From: Kordiimonas sp. SCSIO 12603
GTDB taxonomy: Bacteria; Pseudomonadota; Alphaproteobacteria; Sphingomonadales; Kordiimonadaceae
Direction of reading: 5' to 3'
NCBI RefSeq assembly: GCF_024398035.1
Contig: NZ_CP073748.1
Coordinates: forward strand, 1 to 64,000
Length of the DNA stretch: 64,000 bases
Of the stretch, positions 39,733 to 51,392 are shown in pieces. The notes beneath the pieces were generated by a model that ran no database searches, was not told the origin of the DNA, and was given only the letters and a program-made list of their open reading frames with translations. How positions within the stretch are numbered: position 1 is the first letter of the stretch; the number at the start of each line of letters is the position of its first letter. The translations under genes were made by a program, and so were the position numbers.

Positions 39733-39777
39733 TTGACTTTGTCTTGAAAAAGGACAATATGTAGACAAATTTTGTCC
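39733..39777 (+). promoter_or_regulatory. GH3 promoter region with LacI-type operator
   Basis: A possible -35 TTGACT (39733-39738) and -10 CAATAT (39755-39760) precede the perfect palindrome GACAAA-T-TTTGTC (39764-39776), which would sit near the transcription start. GGACAA at 39752-39757 and TTGTCC at 39772-39777 repeat the half-sites seen upstream of the TonB receptor. The region is shared with the divergent lacI-type gene. Confidence 0.65.
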
Positions 39778-39810
39778 TTATTAGCATTAAGACTGACCAG
39801 GGAGACAATC

Positions 39811-42327
39811 ATGCGGAATATCAAAGCCTATAATAAAATACTGAGCTTCGCCCTGCTAACAGCCTTACTTTTGATAATCTATCCAACAGCCTTTCAAAAG
39901 AGCACAGCAAGCATTCCTCTGAACACTCAGAATATCTCAGACAGAGCGGAAAACATCCTCAAAAAGATGACGCTGGAAGAAAAAATAGGGCAGATCATTC
40001 AAGCCGATATTTCCGCCGTCACCCCGGAAGAGGCCAAAGAATATAATCTTGGTTCAGTATTAAACGGTGGTAACTCCGCGCCCGGCGGAAAGGTGACCGC
40101 ACCAGCAAGAAACTGGATAGCCCTTGCCGATGAATTCTGGCACGCTTCTACAGATAAAAGCGATGGAGGCGTTGGCATTCCTTTACTTTGGGGTACCGAT
40201 GCTGTCCACGGCCATAACAATCTGCAAAATGCGACTATTTTCCCCCATAACTCAGGACTTGGAGCCACAAAAAATCCAGCTCTTATTCGTGAGATTGGTG
40301 AAATAACAGCAAAAGAAATTCGCGCTACCGGCATTGACTGGACATTTGCACCAACCCTCGCAGTCGCTAGAGATGATCGTTGGGGCCGCGCATATGAAAG
40401 TTACTCTGAAAACCCTGCGTTGGTATCAATATACGCGGAGGCAATGGTGGAGGGTCTACAAGGCCAGTATCAAGAGCAAAACTTCCTCAAAGATGAGCAT
40501 GTAATTGCGACCGCGAAACATTTTTTCGCCGATGGCGGCACTCACCAAGGCATTGATCGCGGAGACGCACAAGGAGACCTCAAGGAGATTTTTAATATTC
40601 ATGCAGCTGGTTATGGCCCCGCTATTAGCTCACAAGCGCAGACGGTGATGGCTTCTTTTTCCAGTATAAATGGCGAGAAAATGCATGGCTCAAAAGGCTT
40701 TTTAACGGACCTTCTCCGATCTGAAATGGGGTTTGAAGGTTTTGTAGTTGGTGACTGGAATGGTCATGGTGAGGTGCCTGGCTGTAGCCCAACAGATTGT
40801 CTGCAAGCCCTTCATGCAGGGCTCGATATGTTTATGGCACCAGATAGTTGGAAGGGACTTTATAAATCGCTACTCGCTCACGCAAAGTCTGGCGCAATGG
40901 ATATGAAACGGCTTGATGAAGCAGTGAACCGCATTCTTGAGGTTAAAATCAGAGCTGGTCTGCTTGATAGCGTACCACCTAGCGAGCGCACTGCAACCAA
41001 TCCAGCCCTACTTGGCCACAAAGAGCACAGAGCCACAGCGCGGCAAGCAGTTCGAGAGTCCCTTGTGCTGCTGAAAAACAATAACGCCATGCTACCAATC
41101 GCCGGGAATGCAAACATTCTGGTGACTGGCAGCGGTGCTCATTCAATGCAGCAGCAAACAGGTGGCTGGACGCTTTCCTGGCAGGGCGATTCAAATAACA
41201 ACGATGCCTTCGAAACAGGAGAAACCATTTTTGAAGGTATTCAATCGGCTGCCAAGAAATTCGGCGGCAACGCTTTTTTATCCAACGATGGCAGCTATAC
41301 AGAAAAACCAGATGCAGCCATCGTCATATTCGGAGAACAACCTTATGCAGAATACCGTGGTGACCGAAGCGATTTAGTGTTCGAATTTAAAGATGGTGAA
41401 AACCTGAAGCTCCTGAAAACACTAAAAGCTAATGGCATACCAACAGTTTCAGTGTTTCTAACCGGCCGCCCGCTATGGGTAAACAGCCATATTAACGCCT
41501 CAGATGCATTTGTTGTTGCCTGGCTGCCCGGTACCGAAGCTGGCGGTATAGCCGATGTACTGATTGGCAACGAAAAAGCGGTGCCTCGATATAATTTTAC
41601 AGGCACCCTTTCTTTCACATGGCCAAATGTAGGGAGTGGCGAACCTTTAAATGATGCAGACCATCCCGATACACTTTTCCCATACGGATTTGGACTCACT
41701 TACGAATCCTCCACGCGAACAGCACACCTTCAGGAAGACTCCGGTGTAGTGGAATTAGGCGATAATTTTGACGGCAAACTCATTACAAGAGGAGACGCCG
41801 TTGCGCCTTTCGCCTTGTTTTTAGGAGACAATTCAAATCCCAACACTCCTGTCACGTCGCAGCTCGCTAGCTCTATCAGTGGTTCAGTAAACGTGAAGGG
41901 TACAGACTATGCGGCTCAGGAAGATGCCAGAACAATCACATGGAATGGTAAAGGTGAAGGAAGCTTCAGCGTGCGTGTGGATAGAGCTGTAAATTTAAAC
42001 ATGCTGGGTAATCCTGAGACACTCGCGATCAATCTTTTAGCTCGTATCAACCAACAACCAATAGGCTCTGTATATCTCTCCGTCGGATGCGGCGAAGGTT
42101 GCAGCTCAGAGATTGATATTAGCCCGATGATTAAAAATATTGAAAGCAACACATGGCAAACATGGCACTTCCCCATTTCATGTTTTGATTTGGGCAAGCT
42201 GAAAACGGATAATATCGAAACCGCATTTTCTATTCGCTCTACAGGGCCTTTGAGCATCTCAGTTCATGCAGGTGAATTTATCAGCAGTAACGATACGCTT
42301 ACGTGCCCGTCGACTTCAGCTTCATAG
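39811..42327 (+). CDS. Secreted GH3 beta-glucosidase / exo-glucanase (ExoP-like)
   Basis: This 838-residue family-3 glycoside hydrolase has an N-terminal signal or anchor (ILSFALLTALLLIIYPTAFQ). The (beta/alpha)8 domain contains WGTDAVHGHNN and the nucleophile Asp in GFVVGDWNGHG. The alpha/beta sandwich follows (VLLKNNNAMLPI, then AEYRGDRSD) and an ExoP-type C-terminal galactose-binding-like domain closes the protein. It should release glucose from the ends of beta-glucan oligosaccharides in the periplasm. ATG at 39811 has GGGAG upstream and starts the signal. It is divergent from lacI. The last ~36 codons are duplicated as a relic at 59969-60076. Confidence 0.92.
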   Translation: MRNIKAYNKILSFALLTALLLIIYPTAFQKSTASIPLNTQNISDRAENILKKMTLEEKIGQIIQADISAVTPEEAKEYNLGSVLNGGNSAPGGKVTAPARNWIALADEFWHASTDKSDGGVGIPLLWGTDAVHGHNNLQNATIFPHNSGLGATKNPALIREIGEITAKEIRATGIDWTFAPTLAVARDDRWGRAYESYSENPALVSIYAEAMVEGLQGQYQEQNFLKDEHVIATAKHFFADGGTHQGIDRGDAQGDLKEIFNIHAAGYGPAISSQAQTVMASFSSINGEKMHGSKGFLTDLLRSEMGFEGFVVGDWNGHGEVPGCSPTDCLQALHAGLDMFMAPDSWKGLYKSLLAHAKSGAMDMKRLDEAVNRILEVKIRAGLLDSVPPSERTATNPALLGHKEHRATARQAVRESLVLLKNNNAMLPIAGNANILVTGSGAHSMQQQTGGWTLSWQGDSNNNDAFETGETIFEGIQSAAKKFGGNAFLSNDGSYTEKPDAAIVIFGEQPYAEYRGDRSDLVFEFKDGENLKLLKTLKANGIPTVSVFLTGRPLWVNSHINASDAFVVAWLPGTEAGGIADVLIGNEKAVPRYNFTGTLSFTWPNVGSGEPLNDADHPDTLFPYGFGLTYESSTRTAHLQEDSGVVELGDNFDGKLITRGDAVAPFALFLGDNSNPNTPVTSQLASSISGSVNVKGTDYAAQEDARTITWNGKGEGSFSVRVDRAVNLNMLGNPETLAINLLARINQQPIGSVYLSVGCGEGCSSEIDISPMIKNIESNTWQTWHFPISCFDLGKLKTDNIETAFSIRSTGPLSISVHAGEFISSNDTLTCPSTSAS

Positions 42328-42614: not shown

Positions 42615-42631
42615 TATCGAAATTTTCAATA
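42615..42631. promoter_or_regulatory. LysR-type binding site upstream of the first LysR gene
   Basis: TATCGAAATTTTCAATA is an imperfect palindrome (one mismatch) of the T-N11-A type. It ends 11 bases before the LysR ATG at 42642, so autoregulation is likely. It resembles, but differs from, the sites of the second LysR gene. Confidence 0.5.
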
Positions 42632-42641
42632 GGTGCGTGAC

Positions 42642-43517
42642 ATGGATATTACCCAAATACGTACTTTTCTGGCAATCGCTCAGACTGGTAGCTTTATCGG
42701 CGCGGCCAACGTGGTAAATGTAACACAATCTACCGTCAGCGTACGCATGCGTACTTTAGAAGATGAACTCCGCGTAGAACTATTTGAACGCGGAAAACGT
42801 GGAGCAATACTTACGCCTGCCGGACAAAAATTTATGCGTACCGCGACGGCTATGGCTCGACTATGGGACCAGGCTAAACTAGACATTGGAGTTGCAGAAG
42901 AACAAATAGCTAGTTTACGAATAGGAGGTCAAGTTAGCCTATGGCAGGGTTATCTCATTCCTTGGCTAGCGTGGATGAGTGAAAACAATCCAAATCTAGC
43001 CCTACGCGCGCATATGGCAGACCCGTTGCAACTTGTGCAACAGTTAGTAGATGGTGCGTTGGATATCGCAGTAATGTATCGCCCTCAATTCCGACCAGGT
43101 TTTATCGCCAAACCAATCTTCACAGAAGAAATTATTTTAGTCAGCTCCATAAAGAACCATGATGAACCTTTTGATGACAATTACATGCTGACGTACTGGG
43201 GGCCAGCTTTCAAAGAAGATCATGCACTGAATTTCCCTGAACAGAAAGCTCCTCGTTTGACTGCTGATCTCGGAACCATGGCAATAGATTACTTGCTAGA
43301 AAGACCTTCTACCGGCTTTTTTCCTCGCCGTATTGCAGAGCCATATATCGAATCTGGTAACTTAATAATTGTGAAAGAAGTGCCATCATTCGAATACCCG
43401 GCATATTTGGTATATCCTGATATCCTTGATCATGATCTTATGAACCGCTTACTGACAGGTTTAAAGTCAGTTGCAAAATCCCTAAATCTTTCATTTTCAA
43501 ATGAAAAGCTCGTATAA
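42642..43517 (+). CDS. LysR-family transcriptional regulator (paralog 1)
   Basis: This 291-residue LysR regulator has an N-terminal winged helix-turn-helix (MDITQIRTFLAIAQTGSFIG) and a substrate-binding co-inducer domain. It is clearly paralogous to the gene at 48379 along its whole length (shared TFLA, TGSF, MWDQAK/LWDQAK, LVDGxLDxxVxYRPxxRPG and GYFP-like/GFFP motifs). ATG at 42642 is preferred over GTG at 42633, because AGGT lies just upstream. The target is unknown; the small secreted protein at 43630 follows in the same direction. Confidence 0.88.
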   Translation: MDITQIRTFLAIAQTGSFIGAANVVNVTQSTVSVRMRTLEDELRVELFERGKRGAILTPAGQKFMRTATAMARLWDQAKLDIGVAEEQIASLRIGGQVSLWQGYLIPWLAWMSENNPNLALRAHMADPLQLVQQLVDGALDIAVMYRPQFRPGFIAKPIFTEEIILVSSIKNHDEPFDDNYMLTYWGPAFKEDHALNFPEQKAPRLTADLGTMAIDYLLERPSTGFFPRRIAEPYIESGNLIIVKEVPSFEYPAYLVYPDILDHDLMNRLLTGLKSVAKSLNLSFSNEKLV

Positions 43518-43629: not shown

Positions 43630-43932
43630 ATGAATGCAATCAAATACATTTTTCTAATTAGCCTAGGGCTGATTGCTACTGCCGCATTTGCTCAAAACGG
43701 AACCACTGTAATCAATCGTGATGAAATGGATCACGTGCTGGTTATCGAAGATGAAAACGGTAAGACCACGGAAAAAACAATCCATGCTCGTGACTCATTA
43801 AAAAATCTGTGCGCTAAAGAATGTTACTTATCTTTGAAGGGCACGGATGAATTTGAATATGTCGAAGAAGGTGAACAAATAGTCTTCTTGATTGTTGATG
43901 GTCACTTGGTTGTAGACGTTGGTGATGATTAA
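43630..43932 (+). CDS. Small secreted protein of unknown function
   Basis: This 100-residue exported protein has a clear signal peptide (FLISLGLIATAAFAQ). The mature part of about 78 residues is acidic, with one Cys pair in CAKECYLSLKG and a C-terminal VVDVGDD. I recognise no family. ATG at 43630 has an ideal AAGGAG ribosome site. A strong terminator follows at 43963. The gene is between the LysR gene 42642 and the RimK fragment and is probably transcribed alone. Confidence 0.75.
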   Translation: MNAIKYIFLISLGLIATAAFAQNGTTVINRDEMDHVLVIEDENGKTTEKTIHARDSLKNLCAKECYLSLKGTDEFEYVEEGEQIVFLIVDGHLVVDVGDD

Positions 43933-44347: not shown

Positions 44348-44364
44348 TATCGGGCTTTCCGATA
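44348..44364. promoter_or_regulatory. Palindrome TATCGG-GCTTT-CCGATA, second copy of the LysR operator
   Basis: Identical in its arms to the site at 48350-48366, including a following TATAAT-like stretch (CCGATATAATGG here on the plus strand). It lies between the 3' end of the QEGLA gene and the small basic-protein gene. It may drive the small gene (minus strand) or an antisense transcript, or be a leftover of a rearranged promoter. Confidence 0.55.
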
Positions 44365-44376
44365 TAATGGATTTGC

Positions 44377-46410
44377 TCAGGCAGCAGCACTACGTCCATT
44401 GTTAAACACCAGGCCACTCACCAAGTAATCCAGTACAGGATTCACTTCTTGTGGGCTGACAAAACAATTAGCAATACTTGTAGGCTTTCTAACTATACCA
44501 CGTTCAATTAGTAGTGATACCTCGCTCTCTTTAGAAAAGGGGATTTTCCCTGCAAAAAAAGGAAGCCAATCGCCGCCGGAAAGATGATAATTTCGTGCCT
44601 GCGCCAAACCGCGTAAATAAAGGAAATCCTTGGTAAACCCACCACCTCTGTAAACACGTGCAGTTGTAATAAACGCACTGGAAGGTACCGCATGATACTC
44701 TTCAACAAGCATGCTATAGGTTTGAGAAAAGCTGTGATTGTCGAGCAAACTTTTAACCGCCATAACACGATGTCCAAGTGTTTTTAGCCGGTCCAGCGTA
44801 AGCGCACCTCCCAAATGTTCTGCATAAACAGCCATTCCTTCCTGTGTCATGGTAGTACCAGGGAACCCAAGGCGTAACACTTTGAGAGGCTGCTCCCGTG
44901 CGTTGGACGTAGATAAGAGATGTACCCCCACTTCATGATGAACCAAAGCTTTCACCTTTGTGCTTGATAAACGACCGCCTTTTTTCACCAGCACCCGGAA
45001 GTTACTATTATCCACCATTGCGCCCGCGATAATAGAACCTGATACTTTGACAGGAGCATCAATATTATAATGATCTACGGCAGCTTGGATTTGACGAACT
45101 ATTTCCGATGTATCCAATAAATCGGTTTCAAAGCCCCCCCCCGCATCTACAACTGGCGGTGCGTGCAATAAAAACTGTGCATTTTTTAAGTCATTCAGAT
45201 GGGGCTCACCGTAATATCTCAAGGAATTATATAAAAACTCTCTCGTCCCGATAACAGTAAGCAAATCAATCTTGGTCGCCAATCCGTCTATAGCGTCTTT
45301 ATACAGCTGTTGAAGCATTGGATCTGCTATATTTTCAACTGGCAATCGATACAGAGCCTCCCTGAATAGATATGGGTCGATTGCCAGTTGCCGATAATGA
45401 AAATCAGGTTCGTAGCTTCCTTTACGAGCGATAAACCGCTTCTGTTCCTGTGCCAGATTGATGGGGTTCACATATAATAAAGTCTCTACTTTACGTGCCA
45501 GCTTATAAAGTGCCGTATCAATCTTCCTCACCAGCGCATCATGCCCTCCACCCAACATATGGTGTCCGCGAGCCTGTGAACGTTTCAGGCGTGTACGTGC
45601 AAAAAAAGCTGCGTGGCGTGAAATAACCTGAGCCAATTGAACCTTTAAGCTATCTATAACAACAGGGAATGGAATGCCCTGTTCCTCTTTACAAAAAACC
45701 TTTTTGATCTCTAACGGGATACACAACACATTTTTAAAGTGTTTGCGCAAGTATGCCGCTACATATCCTCGCCCCTCGAAAACTTCATCACGGCCGATAC
45801 GAACGTTCTCGCTTGGGATATCGATTTCACATAAACTACGTTCCAGAAAGTCTATATTTCTGCGATACCGCCTCATATCTATGGAATGAGTTCCTATATT
45901 GAAGGTCGGTGCCTGAGGGCCACCTTTCCGGCTACCATTATAGGAATGTATATCATAAACTACACACCCTCCGTACTTTTGCACGAGATGGTCAACGAGT
46001 ATATGTAGCACCTGATAGAATTCTTCATGCTTTGCTAGGCTTTTAGCCTTTATCTGATCAGACAACGGCTTATGCCAAACCTTTTCGCCCCATGCCTCTT
46101 CATAGATAGCATGTTCCGGCGTTCTGTTCAGATCATACTCATAACGACTGTCATGCACAGTGAGCCGATTTTGCAAGCCTGCAATTAGATCGCCTGTATA
46201 TGGATCTTCCTCGAAAAGTCGCTCATCCGGGCTTAGAGCACAATGAGATGAAACCTCTTCTCGCATATTGTTGCCATGATGCACTGCCAAACAAAGAAAG
46301 GGCTGGTCATCATAAAACTGCAGATTAAACGCTCCACTCTCGTAATAACCCTCAATTACGCTATTTTTGCGGAGAGCCGCCGCCAATTCGTCAACCCTCG
46401 GCAACTGCAT
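44377..46410 (-). CDS. N-formylglutamate amidohydrolase / QEGLA (DUF1704) metallopeptidase fusion
   Basis: This 677-residue protein has two parts. The N-terminal half (about 20-270) is like N-formylglutamate amidohydrolases, with LAVHHGNNMREE, EYDLNRTPEHAIYEE and VVYDIHSYNGSR. The C-terminal half (about 290-660) is a DUF1704 / QEGLA metallopeptidase with zinc motif H-E-x-x-x-H (VHHEVGVHLLSTSN) and the third-ligand motif TQEGMAVYAEHLGG, where family members read QEGLA. Members of this family have been linked to tyrosine carboxypeptidase activity in eukaryotes; the bacterial role is unknown. ATG at 46410 overlaps the ATP-grasp gene by 20 bases. It is the last gene of the operon. Confidence 0.82.
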   Translation of the reverse strand: MQLPRVDELAAALRKNSVIEGYYESGAFNLQFYDDQPFLCLAVHHGNNMREEVSSHCALSPDERLFEEDPYTGDLIAGLQNRLTVHDSRYEYDLNRTPEHAIYEEAWGEKVWHKPLSDQIKAKSLAKHEEFYQVLHILVDHLVQKYGGCVVYDIHSYNGSRKGGPQAPTFNIGTHSIDMRRYRRNIDFLERSLCEIDIPSENVRIGRDEVFEGRGYVAAYLRKHFKNVLCIPLEIKKVFCKEEQGIPFPVVIDSLKVQLAQVISRHAAFFARTRLKRSQARGHHMLGGGHDALVRKIDTALYKLARKVETLLYVNPINLAQEQKRFIARKGSYEPDFHYRQLAIDPYLFREALYRLPVENIADPMLQQLYKDAIDGLATKIDLLTVIGTREFLYNSLRYYGEPHLNDLKNAQFLLHAPPVVDAGGGFETDLLDTSEIVRQIQAAVDHYNIDAPVKVSGSIIAGAMVDNSNFRVLVKKGGRLSSTKVKALVHHEVGVHLLSTSNAREQPLKVLRLGFPGTTMTQEGMAVYAEHLGGALTLDRLKTLGHRVMAVKSLLDNHSFSQTYSMLVEEYHAVPSSAFITTARVYRGGGFTKDFLYLRGLAQARNYHLSGGDWLPFFAGKIPFSKESEVSLLIERGIVRKPTSIANCFVSPQEVNPVLDYLVSGLVFNNGRSAAA

Positions 46411-47425
46411 CTTCAATCGCCTGTCTATATGCAGTTTTACGAGCGGCCTGCATTTCCTTAGCCCGCACAACCGTTTCCGCAAAATCAATGATTTGCCTTT
46501 GCAGTTTCACTCTGTTTAAACGGTTGATACGCGTGATGCCGCCTGGGCTCAGAACATTTACCTCAATCAGCTTTCCGCCGATAACATCAAGGCCAACAAA
46601 ATAGAGACCATCTCTTACCAACTTAGGTCCAATATGTTTGCATAGAGCTTTTTCAGCCTTGCTTAGAGCATGTTTTACTTCTCGGCCCCCACGGCTAATA
46701 TTTGCTCTTAATTCTCCATCTGCAGGTACCCGTTTCATGGCACCAATAGGTTCACCATTAAGCATCAAAATTCGAATATCGCCTTCTTCAGCCCCTTCCA
46801 CAAAATCCTGCATAATCACATAGCGATCTTCTTTTTCCCCAAGATAGAAATCCAGCAATGATCGAATATTTGCGCTTGCTGAACGTTCAATAACAATCAC
46901 GCCACTACCACCATAACCGTCGAGAGGCTTGAGGATCATTCTGTCGCTGGGAGCATCAGCTAATACGCGTTCCAGATACTCTCTATTTTTTGACACATGG
47001 GTCGTAGGAACAAAGCGTTTATCTGGGTCATTCAGTGCGGCGGTATAAACCTTATTATTAGCAATACGCACACCATCTACATCATTCATTATGAAGACAC
47101 TGTCTTTAACCGAATCCAAAAAATTCAGTGCAACGGGATCAACGGGAGGATTTGCTCGCAAGAAAATGACATCAAACCCAGCCAAAGGCAGCATTTTGGT
47201 TTGGAACGACGCATTTTTATGAAGCGAATGAGGTGTTTTTGCTACTATCTTCCTAGAAAGAACCTGACAAAAAGCATAGGCAACCGTGTCCCGAATGGTT
47301 AGCTTGGTTGGTGTTGTTATCGCCACCGTATGTCCACGCAGATGTGCCTCATGGATAAGCCGGAGAGTAGAATCTGACACCGGATCCACCTTATCCCATG
47401 GATACATCAGAAAGCATATTTTCAT
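46391..47425 (-). CDS. Glutathione-synthetase-like ATP-grasp ligase
   Basis: This 344-residue ATP-grasp enzyme resembles GshB: an N-terminal domain (MKICFLMYPWDKVDPVSDST), ATP-binding motifs (RMILKPLDGYGGSGVIVIER, YVIMQDFVEGAEEGDIRILM) and the C-terminal catalytic loop (GLDVIGGKLIEVNVLSPGGI) with metal-binding Glu and Asn. Such enzymes join a carboxylate to an amine. In this setting the substrate may be an amino acid, a small peptide or the 70-residue protein, rather than gamma-glutamylcysteine. ATG at 47425 has GAGGTAAC upstream and lies eight bases after the oxygenase stop. A true glutathione synthase is an alternative. Confidence 0.82.
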   Translation of the reverse strand: MKICFLMYPWDKVDPVSDSTLRLIHEAHLRGHTVAITTPTKLTIRDTVAYAFCQVLSRKIVAKTPHSLHKNASFQTKMLPLAGFDVIFLRANPPVDPVALNFLDSVKDSVFIMNDVDGVRIANNKVYTAALNDPDKRFVPTTHVSKNREYLERVLADAPSDRMILKPLDGYGGSGVIVIERSASANIRSLLDFYLGEKEDRYVIMQDFVEGAEEGDIRILMLNGEPIGAMKRVPADGELRANISRGGREVKHALSKAEKALCKHIGPKLVRDGLYFVGLDVIGGKLIEVNVLSPGGITRINRLNRVKLQRQIIDFAETVVRAKEMQAARKTAYRQAIEDAVAEG

Positions 47426-47433
47426 TGTTACCT

Positions 47434-48051
47434 CTACCGAAAAACTGGACCATGCATCCACACAGCCAAAGACTGTCGAATACCTGATTTCACCGGACAT
47501 ACCCGGTGTAGTGAAAAACTGGGAAAAGCGATTAAAGTACCTTGATCAAGCGGAGCTGAATGAGGGTTGCCATTAATATTTATCTCGAGGGTACCACCCG
47601 AATAATCATCGGGAGAGCTCAGTTGAATAACCATACTCAGTTTGCGGGTAATAGAGTGTCCGCTGGATCCAATATCAATATGCCAATCATAAAAATCACC
47701 TATCTGATCGGCGGACCTCGCATGGTATCGAAGAAATTGAAATCCCTCATCAAAGCCTGTTAAATCAAATGAAAAATAGTCTCGATTAATATCCGCGGCA
47801 GCTCTTGCCAATTTAACCGACAACCAAGACAAACTGCATTCGTCTATCCAACAAACTTCGGCCGACCGGATTGTTGGTACTGTTACGCTGCCAGATAACT
47901 GCCCCTGCTGCATATTGTTTTCACTTGCGGCTCGAACAACTAACTGACATTCCTCAACTGATAAAAACCCTTTCTTGAGATAGGGTAACATCGACATCTT
48001 TTGTTGAGGATGTAATCTCAAAGGGGTGATTTCATCGACATGATCCAGCAT
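47434..48051 (-). CDS. Fe(II)/2-oxoglutarate-dependent oxygenase
   Basis: This 205-residue enzyme has the iron-binding facial triad H-x-D...H and the 2-oxoglutarate Arg: DWHIDIG near residue 115, FPSFSLHRVCPVKSGIRQSL near 175. It is like the prolyl-4-hydroxylase/PKHD class and should hydroxylate an amino-acid side chain or small peptide. ATG at 48051 is preferred to upstream in-frame starts because it follows the TAG of the 70-residue gene by one base (translational coupling) and fits the domain limit. Confidence 0.85.
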   Translation of the reverse strand: MLDHVDEITPLRLHPQQKMSMLPYLKKGFLSVEECQLVVRAASENNMQQGQLSGSVTVPTIRSAEVCWIDECSLSWLSVKLARAAADINRDYFSFDLTGFDEGFQFLRYHARSADQIGDFYDWHIDIGSSGHSITRKLSMVIQLSSPDDYSGGTLEININGNPHSAPLDQGTLIAFPSFSLHRVCPVKSGIRQSLAVWMHGPVFR

Positions 48052-48052
48052 A

Positions 48053-48265
48053 CTACCCAATATCCAGATCATATATTTCGCAAAGGTCGATAACCTCAGA
48101 TACGGATACACCGTAGGTGTCCGCAATCGTTTCCAACGAGCGACCACTATTAAGCGCTGTACTTAAAACAACCTCACTCACTGGCCACCGAACCTCAAAA
48201 AATCGGCTTGGGCTATCATCGAAATCTAGACCGATCTCATCATCATAGTCAGAAGAATGAGGCAC
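48053..48265 (-). CDS. Small acidic protein heading the ATP-grasp operon
   Basis: This 70-residue acidic protein starts MPHSSDYDDEIGLDFDDSPS and ends EVIDLCEIYDLDIG. The second half (SLETIADTYGVSVSEVIDLC) looks like a helix-turn-helix of the DUF433 kind. No signal is present. GTG at 48265 follows AAGGAAAAG. It is the first gene of the operon and is coupled to the oxygenase. It could be the substrate peptide, a carrier or a small regulator; no function can be assigned. Confidence 0.65.
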   Translation of the reverse strand: MPHSSDYDDEIGLDFDDSPSRFFEVRWPVSEVVLSTALNSGRSLETIADTYGVSVSEVIDLCEIYDLDIG

Positions 48266-48349
48266 TGTTCTTTTCCTTTTAAAGGGTACTCAAACAATAG
48301 TTCTGCGCCTCCTTTTACTATTTGAAAAGCGAAGTTTTGTGATAGATTA

Positions 48350-48366
48350 TATCGGGTTTTCCGATA
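48350..48366. promoter_or_regulatory. Palindromic LysR operator TATCGG-GTTTT-CCGATA between divergent genes
   Basis: A perfect 6-bp inverted repeat with a 5-base centre, of the T-N11-A LysR type. On its minus-strand side it overlaps a strong -10 (TATAAT, complement of 48346-48351) with no clear -35, as expected for an activator-dependent promoter of the 48265-44377 operon. On the other side it lies 12 bases before the LysR ATG, so autoregulation is likely. The same arms occur at 44348. Confidence 0.7.
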
Positions 48367-48378
48367 ATGGAGAGAGTA

Positions 48379-49251
48379 ATGGATATCGTTCAAGCACGTA
48401 CGTTTCTGGCAGTTCTTGAGACAGGCTCTTTTCTGCGTGCAGCAGAAAAAATAAATGCTGCTCAATCCACGATAAGCGGTCGCATCAAAACTCTTGAAGT
48501 TATGCTGGGACAAGAATTATTCGAACGAAACAAAACAGGAGCAACCCCAACACAGGCCGGAAAAGAATTTGCCCGCCATGCCATTTCAATTGTGCGCATG
48601 TGGGATCAAGCTAAAATCTCTCTTGCGCTACGAGATGAGCAAAAGAGTATGCTTACAATAGGGGGACAACCAAGCTTATGGGACGGTTTCCTGCTAAAAT
48701 GGCTGCCATGGATGAGGCAACACGCGCCAGAAATAGCCATTCGTGCCCAAATGGTTGCATCATCACCTGCATTAATGCAGCAGCTTGTTGATGGTGTATT
48801 AGATCTTGTAGTTTTGTATCGTCCGGAAGCTAGGCCTGGGTATGTTATTCGACAGATTTTTGAAGAACATTTGGTACTTGTTACCAGTGAACTTTCAACT
48901 GCTACTATAGAGGAAAACCGCTACATCTATTTTGATTGGGGGCCGGAGTTTCAAGCAGACCATGCAATGAATTTTCCCGAGCTATCTACACCTGTCATGA
49001 ACCTAAATGTTGGTACGCTTGGGATTTCCTTTCTACTCGAAAACAAAGCGACTGGATACTTTCCTTTGCGCATAGCAGAACCGTTTTTACAATCTGGTGA
49101 ATTAAAGCTTCTAGAGGACACTCCAATTTTTACATACCCAACTTACGCAGCCTACAGTGAAGATCACGACAGCAAATTGATTGAGGTAGCTATAGACGGG
49201 TTGAAACGGGTTGCATCAAAAGAACTACCAGAACCAGAAGATGTTTTTTAA
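48379..49251 (+). CDS. LysR-family transcriptional regulator (paralog 2), divergent from the ATP-grasp operon
   Basis: This 290-residue LysR protein has a helix-turn-helix at the start (MDIVQARTFLAVLETGSFLR, then AAQSTISGRIKTLE) and a co-inducer-binding domain. It is paralogous to the gene at 42642. ATG at 48379 has GGAGAGAG upstream and is preferred over the ATG at 48367, which touches the operator. Divergent arrangement with the four-gene operon and a shared palindrome make it the likely activator. Confidence 0.9.
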   Translation: MDIVQARTFLAVLETGSFLRAAEKINAAQSTISGRIKTLEVMLGQELFERNKTGATPTQAGKEFARHAISIVRMWDQAKISLALRDEQKSMLTIGGQPSLWDGFLLKWLPWMRQHAPEIAIRAQMVASSPALMQQLVDGVLDLVVLYRPEARPGYVIRQIFEEHLVLVTSELSTATIEENRYIYFDWGPEFQADHAMNFPELSTPVMNLNVGTLGISFLLENKATGYFPLRIAEPFLQSGELKLLEDTPIFTYPTYAAYSEDHDSKLIEVAIDGLKRVASKELPEPEDVF

Positions 49252-50035: not shown

Positions 50036-50114
50036 CTCTTAATAATCAACTGAAAACGTGGCGAGCGCCTTCGCGCTGGTCATCTCTCGTATATTATTAA
50101 GAGAAGATTTTTCT

Positions 50115-51392
50115 ATGAAACTGAAATTCATGGTGGCTTCAACCACCATTGTCGCCCTCATGTGTGCGCAAAGCACATATGCGAGTGATACCATAAACCG
50201 TGAGGAAGCCATTAAACGCACATTGGCTGTTTCCCCGGTGCTGGCTGCCAGTCAGGCGCGTATAGAAGCATTTGGTGCCTCAATTGAGCAAGCAAACGTA
50301 CGGCCAAATCCAACACTTAGCTTAGCGACAGAAGATTTCACAGGTACAGGCCCTTTTACAGGATTGAATCAAAGTGAAATTACCTTCAGCTATGCCCAGA
50401 AATTTGAACGAGGGGGCAAGAGGCAGCTAAGAACATCGCTCGCCAGAATGGAGCAAAACGCTGTTAAACTTGAGTTTGATATCAACAAGCTGGATATCAT
50501 TAAAGCTACTGAAACAGCCTATCTGGATGTTTTATTAGCTCTGGCACAGCTAAAGGCCATTCAAGAGCAAATCAACCTCTTTCAAGAACTTAAATCAGCA
50601 ATATCAGACCGCGTTGAACAAGGCCGAGATTCTCAGCTTGCTCTTCAAAATGCAGAGCTGCGCCTCCTTCAAATCCAGACCCAAAAGAACGCTGCTGAAC
50701 AAAAATTGTCCAATCTTAAATTTGCACTCGCACGTTTATGGCAAAGTAGCGATACCGACTTTGAGATAGATGCCAAACAGCTCCATCAACTGCCAGATGC
50801 TTTATTACCGGCAAAGCTGGAAATACTTCAAACAAGCCCGGACATCCAGATTTGGGTATACCGGGAGCAAGCCAAGAAGGGTGCTCTGGACCTGGAAAAA
50901 GCGCAAGCAAAGCAGGATCCTACTGTAAGTTTCGGCGTTCGCTATCTACAAACCACTGGTGATGTTGCGGCAGTAGCCAATGTTTCTATTCCGTTTGCGC
51001 TCTATGACACCAACAAAGGTAATATTAAGCGTGCAAAAGCTGAAATCAGCCAAAACAGATACCAGCTTATTGAGGTTGAACGCAAAATTGAGAACGCTCT
51101 CTTTAATGAGCAGCGCTCTCTTGAAACTTCATTCGTTCAAATCCAAAGGCTGAAAAAGGGTTTGAAACAGGCACAGGAGGCTAAATCCACAGCCCTTGAA
51201 CAATTATCACTGGGGCTTGTTTCCTACCTTGATATCTTTGCGTCTCAAGCACTGGTATTTGATTTTGAAACACAGATTATCCAGCAGCTTTCTGCCTTCC
51301 ATACAGCACAAATCGAAATTGACCGTCTAACTGCACGGTACAGCACTTTTGAAGTGCCTGCTTCCGCTCTTGCTAAAGACGAGGGAAAATAA
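50115..51392 (+). CDS. czcC: Outer-membrane efflux protein CzcC (TolC family)
   Basis: This 425-residue outer-membrane channel has a signal peptide (LKFMVASTTIVALMCAQSTYA) and two TolC-like coiled-coil repeats (about 60-225 and 260-415) with RPNPTLSLATEDF and KFERGGKRQLR motifs typical of CzcC. It should form the exit duct for divalent cations. ATG at 50115 is chosen because it starts the signal; GAAGA lies upstream. czcB follows one base after the stop. Confidence 0.9.
   Translation: MKLKFMVASTTIVALMCAQSTYASDTINREEAIKRTLAVSPVLAASQARIEAFGASIEQANVRPNPTLSLATEDFTGTGPFTGLNQSEITFSYAQKFERGGKRQLRTSLARMEQNAVKLEFDINKLDIIKATETAYLDVLLALAQLKAIQEQINLFQELKSAISDRVEQGRDSQLALQNAELRLLQIQTQKNAAEQKLSNLKFALARLWQSSDTDFEIDAKQLHQLPDALLPAKLEILQTSPDIQIWVYREQAKKGALDLEKAQAKQDPTVSFGVRYLQTTGDVAAVANVSIPFALYDTNKGNIKRAKAEISQNRYQLIEVERKIENALFNEQRSLETSFVQIQRLKKGLKQAQEAKSTALEQLSLGLVSYLDIFASQALVFDFETQIIQQLSAFHTAQIEIDRLTARYSTFEVPASALAKDEGK

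What the first reader, a model, noticed from the sequence alone, without database searches (positions are those of the whole stretch)
44377..48366. Uncharacterised ATP-grasp / oxygenase / QEGLA-peptidase operon with a small acidic leader protein
Four tightly coupled genes encode a 70-residue acidic protein, an Fe/2-oxoglutarate oxygenase, a GshB-like ATP-grasp ligase and a fused N-formylglutamate amidohydrolase/QEGLA metalloprotease, under a divergent LysR. The set contains a ligase, a hydroxylase and a peptidase, which is the logic of a peptide- or amino-acid-derived metabolite or protein-modification system. I know of no product for it. It is the best candidate for an undescribed system here.
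Basis: inference. Interest (0 to 1): 0.75.

Follow-up and report, generated by a model that had tools for sequence, protein, structure and literature searches.

The report
Bacterial tail-editing ligase and carboxypeptidase operon
This operon pairs a peptide-bond-making enzyme with a bacterial relative of the human enzyme that trims tubulin tails, a pairing found in many marine bacteria, and it may add and remove amino acids at the acidic ends of small proteins.

Summary
The four genes are real and tightly coupled. The conserved unit is not the four-gene set but its last two genes: a PRK12458-type ATP-grasp ligase plus FGase and MATCAP domains. MATCAP is the family of human tubulin tyrosine carboxypeptidases; catalytic residues are kept in 42 of 42 aligned proteins. 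The ligase lies beside FGase-MATCAP in 71 of 80 named loci. Oxygenase and 70-residue protein were found in 0 of 80. A separate canonical GshB exists. The operon looks acquired from marine gammaproteobacteria. In Photobacterium, two unrelated small proteins at the locus end in acidic tails closing with Tyr/Phe/Ile; operon-less relatives mostly lack this. The window's 70-residue protein ends YDLDIG. Published RNA-seq shows the Photobacterium genes induced by low salt (PMC10308900). Best reading: a writer/eraser pair editing acidic protein C-termini, analogous to tubulin tyrosination/detyrosination and RimK. Against it: the tail motif is nearly confined to Photobacterium, many operons have no neighbouring candidate substrate, and flavobacterial neighbours suggest a peptide metabolite. 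No activity was tested; the structure job for the fusion protein failed.

The parts
48053..48265 (-). 70-aa acidic protein; low-confidence N-terminus, three predicted helices, free C-terminal end ...YDLDIG; candidate substrate
   Evidence: ORF and coupling; pI; AlphaFold single sequence, mean pLDDT 71.9, helices 31-39, 44-51, 55-64; found in 1 of 220 class genomes, its own
47434..48051 (-). 2OG-Fe(II) oxygenase, PKHD/PiuC-like; lineage-specific addition
   Evidence: PF13640 1.1e-14; PKHD hydroxylase structures 3dkq, 9qn0; matches in 45 of 230 class genomes including its own; 0 of 10 fetched neighbourhoods hold a ligase, FGase-MATCAP or 70-aa hit
46391..47425 (-). ATP-grasp ligase of the PRK12458 / NF009110 subfamily (GshB-like, second copy)
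   Evidence: 436 bits over cut-off 408; closest structure E. coli GshB 1gsa; alignment
45700..46302 (-). FGase domain (N-formylglutamate amidohydrolase family) with H44, E68, H155 and E234
   Evidence: PF05013 2e-18; H44 41/42, E68 41/42, H155 39/42, E234 37/42; that these are the metal and catalytic residues is recalled
44377..46410 (-). FGase-MATCAP fusion protein, 677 aa
44416..45441 (-). MATCAP (QEGLA) metallo-carboxypeptidase domain, HEVGVH and QEGMA motifs
   Evidence: PF08014 4.2e-87; place; profile hits human KIAA0895L structures 7z5g/7z5h and 7z6s, E 2.4e-18 and 5.6e-17
48379..49251 (+). divergent LysR regulator, HdfR-like
   Evidence: PF00126/PF03466; best NCBIfam HdfR, below its cut-off; 31% identical to the operon-linked LysR of Photobacterium L074
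48350..48366 (.). inverted repeat TATCGGGTTTTCCGATA, probable LysR box
44348..44364 (.). second exact copy, TATCGGGCTTTCCGATA, next to a possible relic of a lysR start
42642..43517 (+). second HdfR-like LysR, paralog of the first; a decayed repeat at 42615-42631
   Evidence: 48% identity; 3 mismatches

Best explanation
The operon is a writer/eraser pair for protein C-termini. The ATP-grasp enzyme activates the C-terminal carboxylate of an acidic tail and adds an amino acid, as GshB does on gamma-Glu-Cys, RimK on ribosomal protein S6 and tubulin tyrosine ligase on alpha-tubulin (these reactions are established knowledge, partly recalled). The MATCAP domain removes C-terminal residues from such tails; the FGase domain, of the broad exopeptidase/deacylase fold class (recalled), removes a second kind of residue or cap. 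In the window the likely substrate is the co-encoded 70-aa protein with its free YDLDIG end, and the oxygenase adds a further modification. In Photobacterium the substrates would be the neighbouring DUF413 and 52-residue proteins. The HdfR-like LysR controls the operon through the 17-bp inverted repeat. Shown: gene content, catalytic residues, linkage, tail motifs. Inferred: every reaction, substrate and regulatory step.
For: MATCAP homology to the human tubulin carboxypeptidase with HExxxH and [QE]EG aligned; H492, E493, H497, E524 in 42 of 42. Human TMCP1 removes C-terminal Y, A, E or G (F too in cells), TMCP2 prefers E and A, and both shorten polyglutamate (PMC10499314, passages). Ligase adjacency: 58 of 80 loci within 100 bases, 13 more within 1.7 kb; of 10 over-cut-off NF009110 places in a 299-genome phylum sample 9 adjoin MATCAP and one, at a contig end, was not examined. 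Photobacterium-type loci: DUF413 tails end [LIM][DEN][YFI] in 40 of 44 operon-linked rows against 1 of 36 unlinked; by distinct tails 37 of 54 against 1 of 40. An unrelated 52-aa protein at the same locus ends in Y/F/W in 24 of 28 distinct sequences, while 12 of 12 g340 homologs without the operon end ...PFD. L086 (Cytophagales) has a third protein, without Pfam or NCBIfam match, directly upstream and ending EEDLDY. The window ligase branches next to the gammaproteobacterial clade, Photobacterium nearest, and its own upstream protein ends YDLDIG; such an end is expected at about 0.0005-0.0016 per protein. PMC10308900 (listing, abstract, passages): 1% versus 3% NaCl raises 'GshB' RS17020 38.4-fold, QEGLA RS17025 27.5-fold and hypothetical RS17005 18.6-fold; by gene order RS17005 should be the 52-aa gene.
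Against: Outside the six named Photobacterium loci a [DE]x[DEN][YFW] end occurs in 1 of 396 ORFs near the operon (L086) and 0 of 766 farther ones. 15 of 15 distinct DUF413 tails from other gammaproteobacterial MATCAP loci lack the motif (three of these loci have no ligase or have DUF413 on the far side of LysR), including Vibrio-type loci L173 and L180. The Photobacterium contrast is largely one clade, so one search's Fisher p (6.7e-12) is not corrected for kinship. G590, without the operon, has a very weak 52-aa homolog (E 0.85) ending RLY. G538 keeps the motif on a DUF413 copy away from the operon. The Shewanella and Moritella loci show no convincing small gene upstream. The window tail ends in Gly, not an aromatic, and was noticed before the motif was fixed. 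Human TMCPs did not accept -GEDY, a penultimate Asp. The window ligase just passes one glutathione-synthase equivalog cut-off (276.9 vs 272), and so does the Photobacterium one (291.7). RS17005 = the 52-aa gene is inferred from tag spacing. 16 of 26 sampled MATCAP loci lack the ligase.
Confidence: 0.42

Rival explanations
1. Small-peptide metabolism. The ligase makes a glutathione-like or acyl-glutamate di/tripeptide (osmolyte or thiol), and FGase and MATCAP hydrolyse it when conditions change; the small proteins are regulators or bystanders.
For: Closest characterised relative is glutathione synthetase and one equivalog cut-off is just passed. In 14 of 80 loci, all Flavobacteriaceae or other Bacteroidota, a dicarboxylate symporter-like gene lies directly upstream of the ligase (Pfam-tested in L137 and L143), and in 13 of 80 a rhodanese-like gene is near (Pfam-tested in L152). 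Induction by low salt. Many operons lack any small partner gene.
Against: The characterised MATCAP members act on protein tails. Does not explain two unrelated acidic tails with an aromatic end at one locus. A second, canonical GshB is present in the window genome.
Confidence: 0.3
2. Polyglutamate editing: the ligase extends C-termini with glutamate as RimK does, and MATCAP/FGase act as deglutamylases; the target may be a housekeeping protein encoded elsewhere.
For: Human TMCPs shorten polyglutamate chains (PMC10499314). RimK is induced 52-fold in the same low-salt experiment. Loci L051 and L066 adjoin a RimB/RloA-type retropepsin gene and an RloB-type gene.
Against: The ligase fails the RimK subfamily cut-off (72.3 vs 143.4).
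Confidence: 0.15
3. Graspetide-like RiPP biosynthesis with the 70-aa protein as precursor, oxygenase and ligase as tailoring enzymes and MATCAP as a processing peptidase.
For: A small gene first in the operon, an ATP-grasp ligase and an oxygenase.
Against: The 70-aa protein has a predicted three-helix part rather than a plain leader plus core; no such precursor was seen in the relatives' operons; no transporter in the operon.
Confidence: 0.08

Closest known systems
Tubulin tyrosination cycle: TTL ligase with MATCAP/TMCP carboxypeptidases
   Same: An ATP-grasp ligase (TTL as ATP-grasp is recalled) and a MATCAP-family carboxypeptidase; acidic tails ending in an aromatic residue in Photobacterium.
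   Different: Bacterial; the ligase is GshB-like; an FGase domain is fused; no tubulin known; human enzymes reject a penultimate Asp, which many of these tails have.
RimK with RimA/RimB on ribosomal protein S6
   Same: ATP-grasp C-terminal amino-acid ligase plus a peptidase; environmental regulation.
   Different: Different ATP-grasp subfamily; the peptidase is MATCAP, not a retropepsin; no S6 link seen.
RloA-RloB-RloC of Pseudomonas aeruginosa
   Same: Peptidase plus ATP-grasp protein; hypo-osmotic stress; RloA- and RloB-type genes adjoin MATCAP operons in L051 and L066.
   Different: The window operon has neither the inactive-transglutaminase membrane protein nor a retropepsin.
HdfR / MaoP (yifE) divergent pair with the maoS site in E. 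coli
   Same: HdfR-like LysR divergent from a DUF413 gene in operon-bearing Vibrionaceae; a 17-nt site in the intergenic region (maoS in E. coli, the inverted repeat here).
   Different: The window genome has no DUF413 match; whether the repeat corresponds to maoS was not tested.
Glutathione synthase GshB
   Same: Family, N- and C-terminal domains.
   Different: Own subfamily with SPGG where the window genome's GshB has SPTG; linked to MATCAP; the window genome has another GshB.

Membership tests
MATCAP/TMCP carboxypeptidase | sequence family | tested here: met
   PF08014 4.2e-87; human KIAA0895L structures by profile, 2.4e-18; a single-sequence search found none
MATCAP/TMCP carboxypeptidase | HExxxH and third ligand in [EQ]EG | tested here: met
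   HEVGVH, QEGMA; 42 of 42
MATCAP/TMCP carboxypeptidase | removes C-terminal residues of acidic tails | not testable with these tools
   needs enzyme assay
Glutathione synthase | GshB domains | tested here: met
   PF02951, PF02955
Glutathione synthase | equivalog cut-offs | tested here: inconclusive
   PRK05246 276.9 vs 272 met; TIGR01380 234.8 vs 299.05 not met; the genome's other GshB meets both, 450.2 and 417.2
Glutathione synthase | sole such enzyme of the cell | tested here: not met
   second GshB at G000:C1:449289
RimK | TIGR00768 cut-off | tested here: not met
   72.3 vs 143.4
N-formylglutamate amidohydrolase family | PF05013 and kept H, E, H, E residues | tested here: met
N-formylglutamate deformylase HutG | TIGR02017 equivalog cut-off | tested here: not met
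   12.1 vs 278.75
HdfR/MaoP pair | DUF413 gene beside the LysR | tested here: not met
   0 matches in the window genome
Tubulin-like tail substrate | acidic C-terminus ending in an aromatic residue | tested here: inconclusive
   Photobacterium mostly met; the window ends YDLDIG
Graspetide RiPP | precursor with leader and core motif | tested here: inconclusive
   no repeat or core motif seen by eye; predicted three-helix part at moderate confidence

The most novel reading that the evidence does not exclude
Bacteria have their own C-terminal tyrosination/detyrosination-type cycle: an ATP-grasp writer and a MATCAP eraser, linked as one transferable operon and acting on dedicated small tail proteins, a prokaryotic counterpart and possible source of the eukaryotic tubulin-tail enzymes.
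Probability: 0.2. Interest if true: 0.9.

Novelty: new variant of a known kind. Interest (0 to 1): 0.62.

Why it matters
MATCAP enzymes are known as tubulin carboxypeptidases, yet relatives are common in bacteria (29 of 299 genomes in one phylum sample), and my searches found no account of what they do there. A conserved bacterial operon that pairs MATCAP with an ATP-grasp ligase and, in one genus, with two tail proteins with an acidic, mostly aromatic end gives a direct, testable substrate prediction. It also suggests a corrected label: the strongly salt-regulated 'GshB' of Photobacterium damselae, next to QEGLA by locus tag, is very probably this ligase (inference).

Tried and rejected
Rejected: the cell's sole glutathione synthase. 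Rejected: four genes conserved as a set. Rejected: the 70-aa protein as a DUF413 homolog (Pfam shows only sub-threshold LysM and Sigma70_r4). Foldseek of the 70-aa model gave no match with E below 1. Oxygenase neighbourhoods in 10 other genomes gave no link. The window's inverted repeat was not among the repeats listed before LysR genes of 20 relatives' loci (lists cut at 12, reached in L047); other inverted repeats are there. AlphaFold of the FGase-MATCAP fusion was interrupted twice, so its fold was not modelled; homology rests on sequence profiles. That genus g345 is Photobacterium is inferred from DUF413 tails identical to those of named loci. The 2009 amidoligase survey that may mention these families is not in the library, so prior mention cannot be excluded.
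Full report
Observation. The four genes exist as described on the - strand, with coupling spacing at every junction. Domain calls: PKHD-type 2OG-Fe(II) oxygenase, GshB-like ATP-grasp, and an FGase-MATCAP fusion. The 70-aa protein has pI 4.05.

Identity of the last gene. TIGR02421 'QEGLA' and Pfam MATCAP (formerly DUF1704; recalled) match the same stretch. A profile of 42 relatives finds the human KIAA0895L/MATCAP structures 7z5g/7z5h (E 2.4e-18) and 7z6s (5.6e-17), aligning the HExxxH motif and the QEG/EEG motif. A single-sequence search found nothing. In 42 of 42 sequences H492, E493, H497, E524, R585, R588, K594, D595, Y598 and K622 are kept. The N-terminal FGase domain keeps H44 (41/42), E68 (41/42), H155 (39/42) and E234 (37/42). 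In other lineages FGase is a separate gene (L051 10080-10910), and the N-terminal part of the MATCAP protein has no FGase match by Pfam (L016; L051); I read that part as a degenerate FGase (inference).

Conservation. PF08014 is in 7 of 240 class genomes and 29 of 299 phylum genomes, the window's genome included. Of 26 fetched loci, 10 have the ligase gene adjacent and 16 do not, so MATCAP genes without it are common. NF009110-type ligases over cut-off occur at 10 places in 8 of 299 genomes; 9 adjoin MATCAP and one, at a contig end, was not examined. Among the 80 best named relatives, the ligase is within 100 bases in 58, within 1.7 kb in 13, and absent in 9, of which two (L096, L147) start near a contig end. 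FGase and MATCAP are separate or broken ORFs in 22 of 80. The oxygenase and the 70-aa protein were seen in 0 of 80 and 0 of 26 loci at phmmer E 1e-3. The 70-aa protein was found in 1 of 220 class genomes, its own.

The ligase. It passes the PRK12458 subfamily cut-off (436 vs 408) and, narrowly, one glutathione-synthase equivalog (276.9 vs 272), but not the other (234.8 vs 299.05). The genome's other GshB passes both (450.2, 417.2) and not PRK12458 (216.7).

Origin. On a tree of 79 ligases the window branches at the base of a gammaproteobacterial clade (support 100/98, on a long branch), with Photobacterium nearest and 70% the highest identity. With the LysR of the same HdfR type, I read the operon as laterally acquired.

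Regulation. The exact repeat TATCGGNNTTTCCGATA occurs twice in the genome, at both ends of the operon. With up to two mismatches the 12 hits are no more than the 16 of the reversed control pattern, so only the exact pair is meaningful. The copy at 44348 is followed by a stretch resembling the lysR start, perhaps a relic of a duplication. In E. coli hdfR and yifE/maoP are divergent and the 17-nt maoS site lies between them (PMC5023128; listing and passages); HdfR regulates maoP (PMC7567609; listing and passages). Similarity of maoS to this repeat was not tested.

Tail proteins. In Photobacterium-type genomes the usual order is 52-aa gene, LysR, DUF413, ligase, FGase-MATCAP; L077 differs, its weak 52-aa homolog lying downstream of FGase-MATCAP. 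DUF413 lies upstream of the ligase in 30 of 30 of the loci L173-L202. DUF413 tails vary in length and sequence but mostly end [LIM][DEN][YFI]: 40 of 44 linked rows (some genomes appear twice) against 1 of 36 unlinked; by distinct tails 37 of 54 against 1 of 40. The 17 linked tails without it are 2 from Photobacterium-type loci and 15 from other gammaproteobacteria. The single unlinked case is a second copy in an operon-bearing genome, G538. In genus g348, without the operon, 3 of 5 tails end DDLD, that is, without a last hydrophobic residue. The 52-aa family has no Pfam or NCBIfam match, is found in 51 of 150 Vibrionaceae genomes, 49 of them in g345, and ends in Y, F or W in 24 of 28 distinct operon-linked sequences. 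Twelve of 12 g340 homologs, from genomes without an over-cut-off ligase, end PFD. Outside the six named Photobacterium loci an acidic [DE]x[DEN][YFW] end appears near the operon only in L086 (1 of 396 near ORFs, 0 of 766 far ORFs). Among 1533 ORFs of at least 100 aa, the pattern [DE][LIM][DEN][YFI] at or one residue before the end occurs in 5, all Photobacterium DUF413. The window's 70-aa protein ends YDLDIG; AlphaFold on the single sequence places these last six residues after the third helix (mean pLDDT 71.9).

Expression. In P. damselae, 1% against 3% NaCl raises 'GshB' RS17020 38.4-fold, QEGLA RS17025 27.5-fold, hypothetical RS17005 18.6-fold and RimK 52-fold; RS17010 and RS17015 are not named in the main text (PMC10308900; abstract and passages). 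By gene order RS17005 should be the 52-aa gene; that genome was not inspected. Loci L051 and L066 adjoin RloA- and RloB-type genes, and Rlo proteases act in hypo-osmotic stress (PMC12239564; abstract start and passages).

Interpretation. Two enzymes with opposite chemistry on peptide ends, and tail proteins with one shared kind of end, point to C-terminal editing. The evidence is strongest in Photobacterium and only suggestive for the window. A small-peptide cycle remains a serious rival, because of the GshB relationship and the symporter (directly upstream of the ligase in 14 of 80 loci) and rhodanese-like neighbours (13 of 80) in flavobacteria and relatives. Searches of the held library found no description of the ligase-FGase-MATCAP unit; one likely survey was not readable.

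Noticed in passing
L074 6015-6179 (-) and other Photobacterium-type loci: A 52-57-aa basic-then-acidic protein family without Pfam or NCBIfam match, mostly ending in Y or F, beyond the LysR gene; 49 of 51 genomes with it are in genus g345.
   Followed up: yes
window 44348-44400: Exact copy of the LysR inverted repeat 12 bases past the operon, followed by a stretch resembling the lysR start: possible relic of a duplicated regulator.
   Followed up: partly
window 42642-43517: Second HdfR-like LysR, 48% identical to the operon's LysR, with a decayed repeat at a similar relative place.
   Followed up: partly
L051 4709-6777, L066 5408-7539: MATCAP operons next to RloA-type (PF05618) and RloB-type (PF14400/PF14402) genes, linking two peptidase/ATP-grasp systems.
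   Followed up: partly
L049 7158-10110: A MATCAP protein with an AstE/AspA-type deacylase (PF24827) as its neighbour; no PRK12458-type ligase hit in that locus.
   Followed up: no
G339: One genome with four MATCAP places; three of them (L052, L053, L054) have their own ligase gene: expansion of the system.
   Followed up: no
L137, L143, L152 and other flavobacterial loci: A dicarboxylate symporter upstream of the ligase and a rhodanese-domain protein between ligase and FGase.
   Followed up: partly
L167 4604-5842, L168 4814-6031: Tandem pairs of relatives of the window oxygenase in two genomes of the window's class.
   Followed up: no
window 43630-43932: 100-aa protein with a signal-like N-terminus and an acidic C-terminus, no Pfam or NCBIfam match.
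   Followed up: no
window 39772-42327 and 50058-51392: Flanks of the region: a glycoside hydrolase family 3 enzyme and an outer-membrane efflux protein.
   Followed up: no
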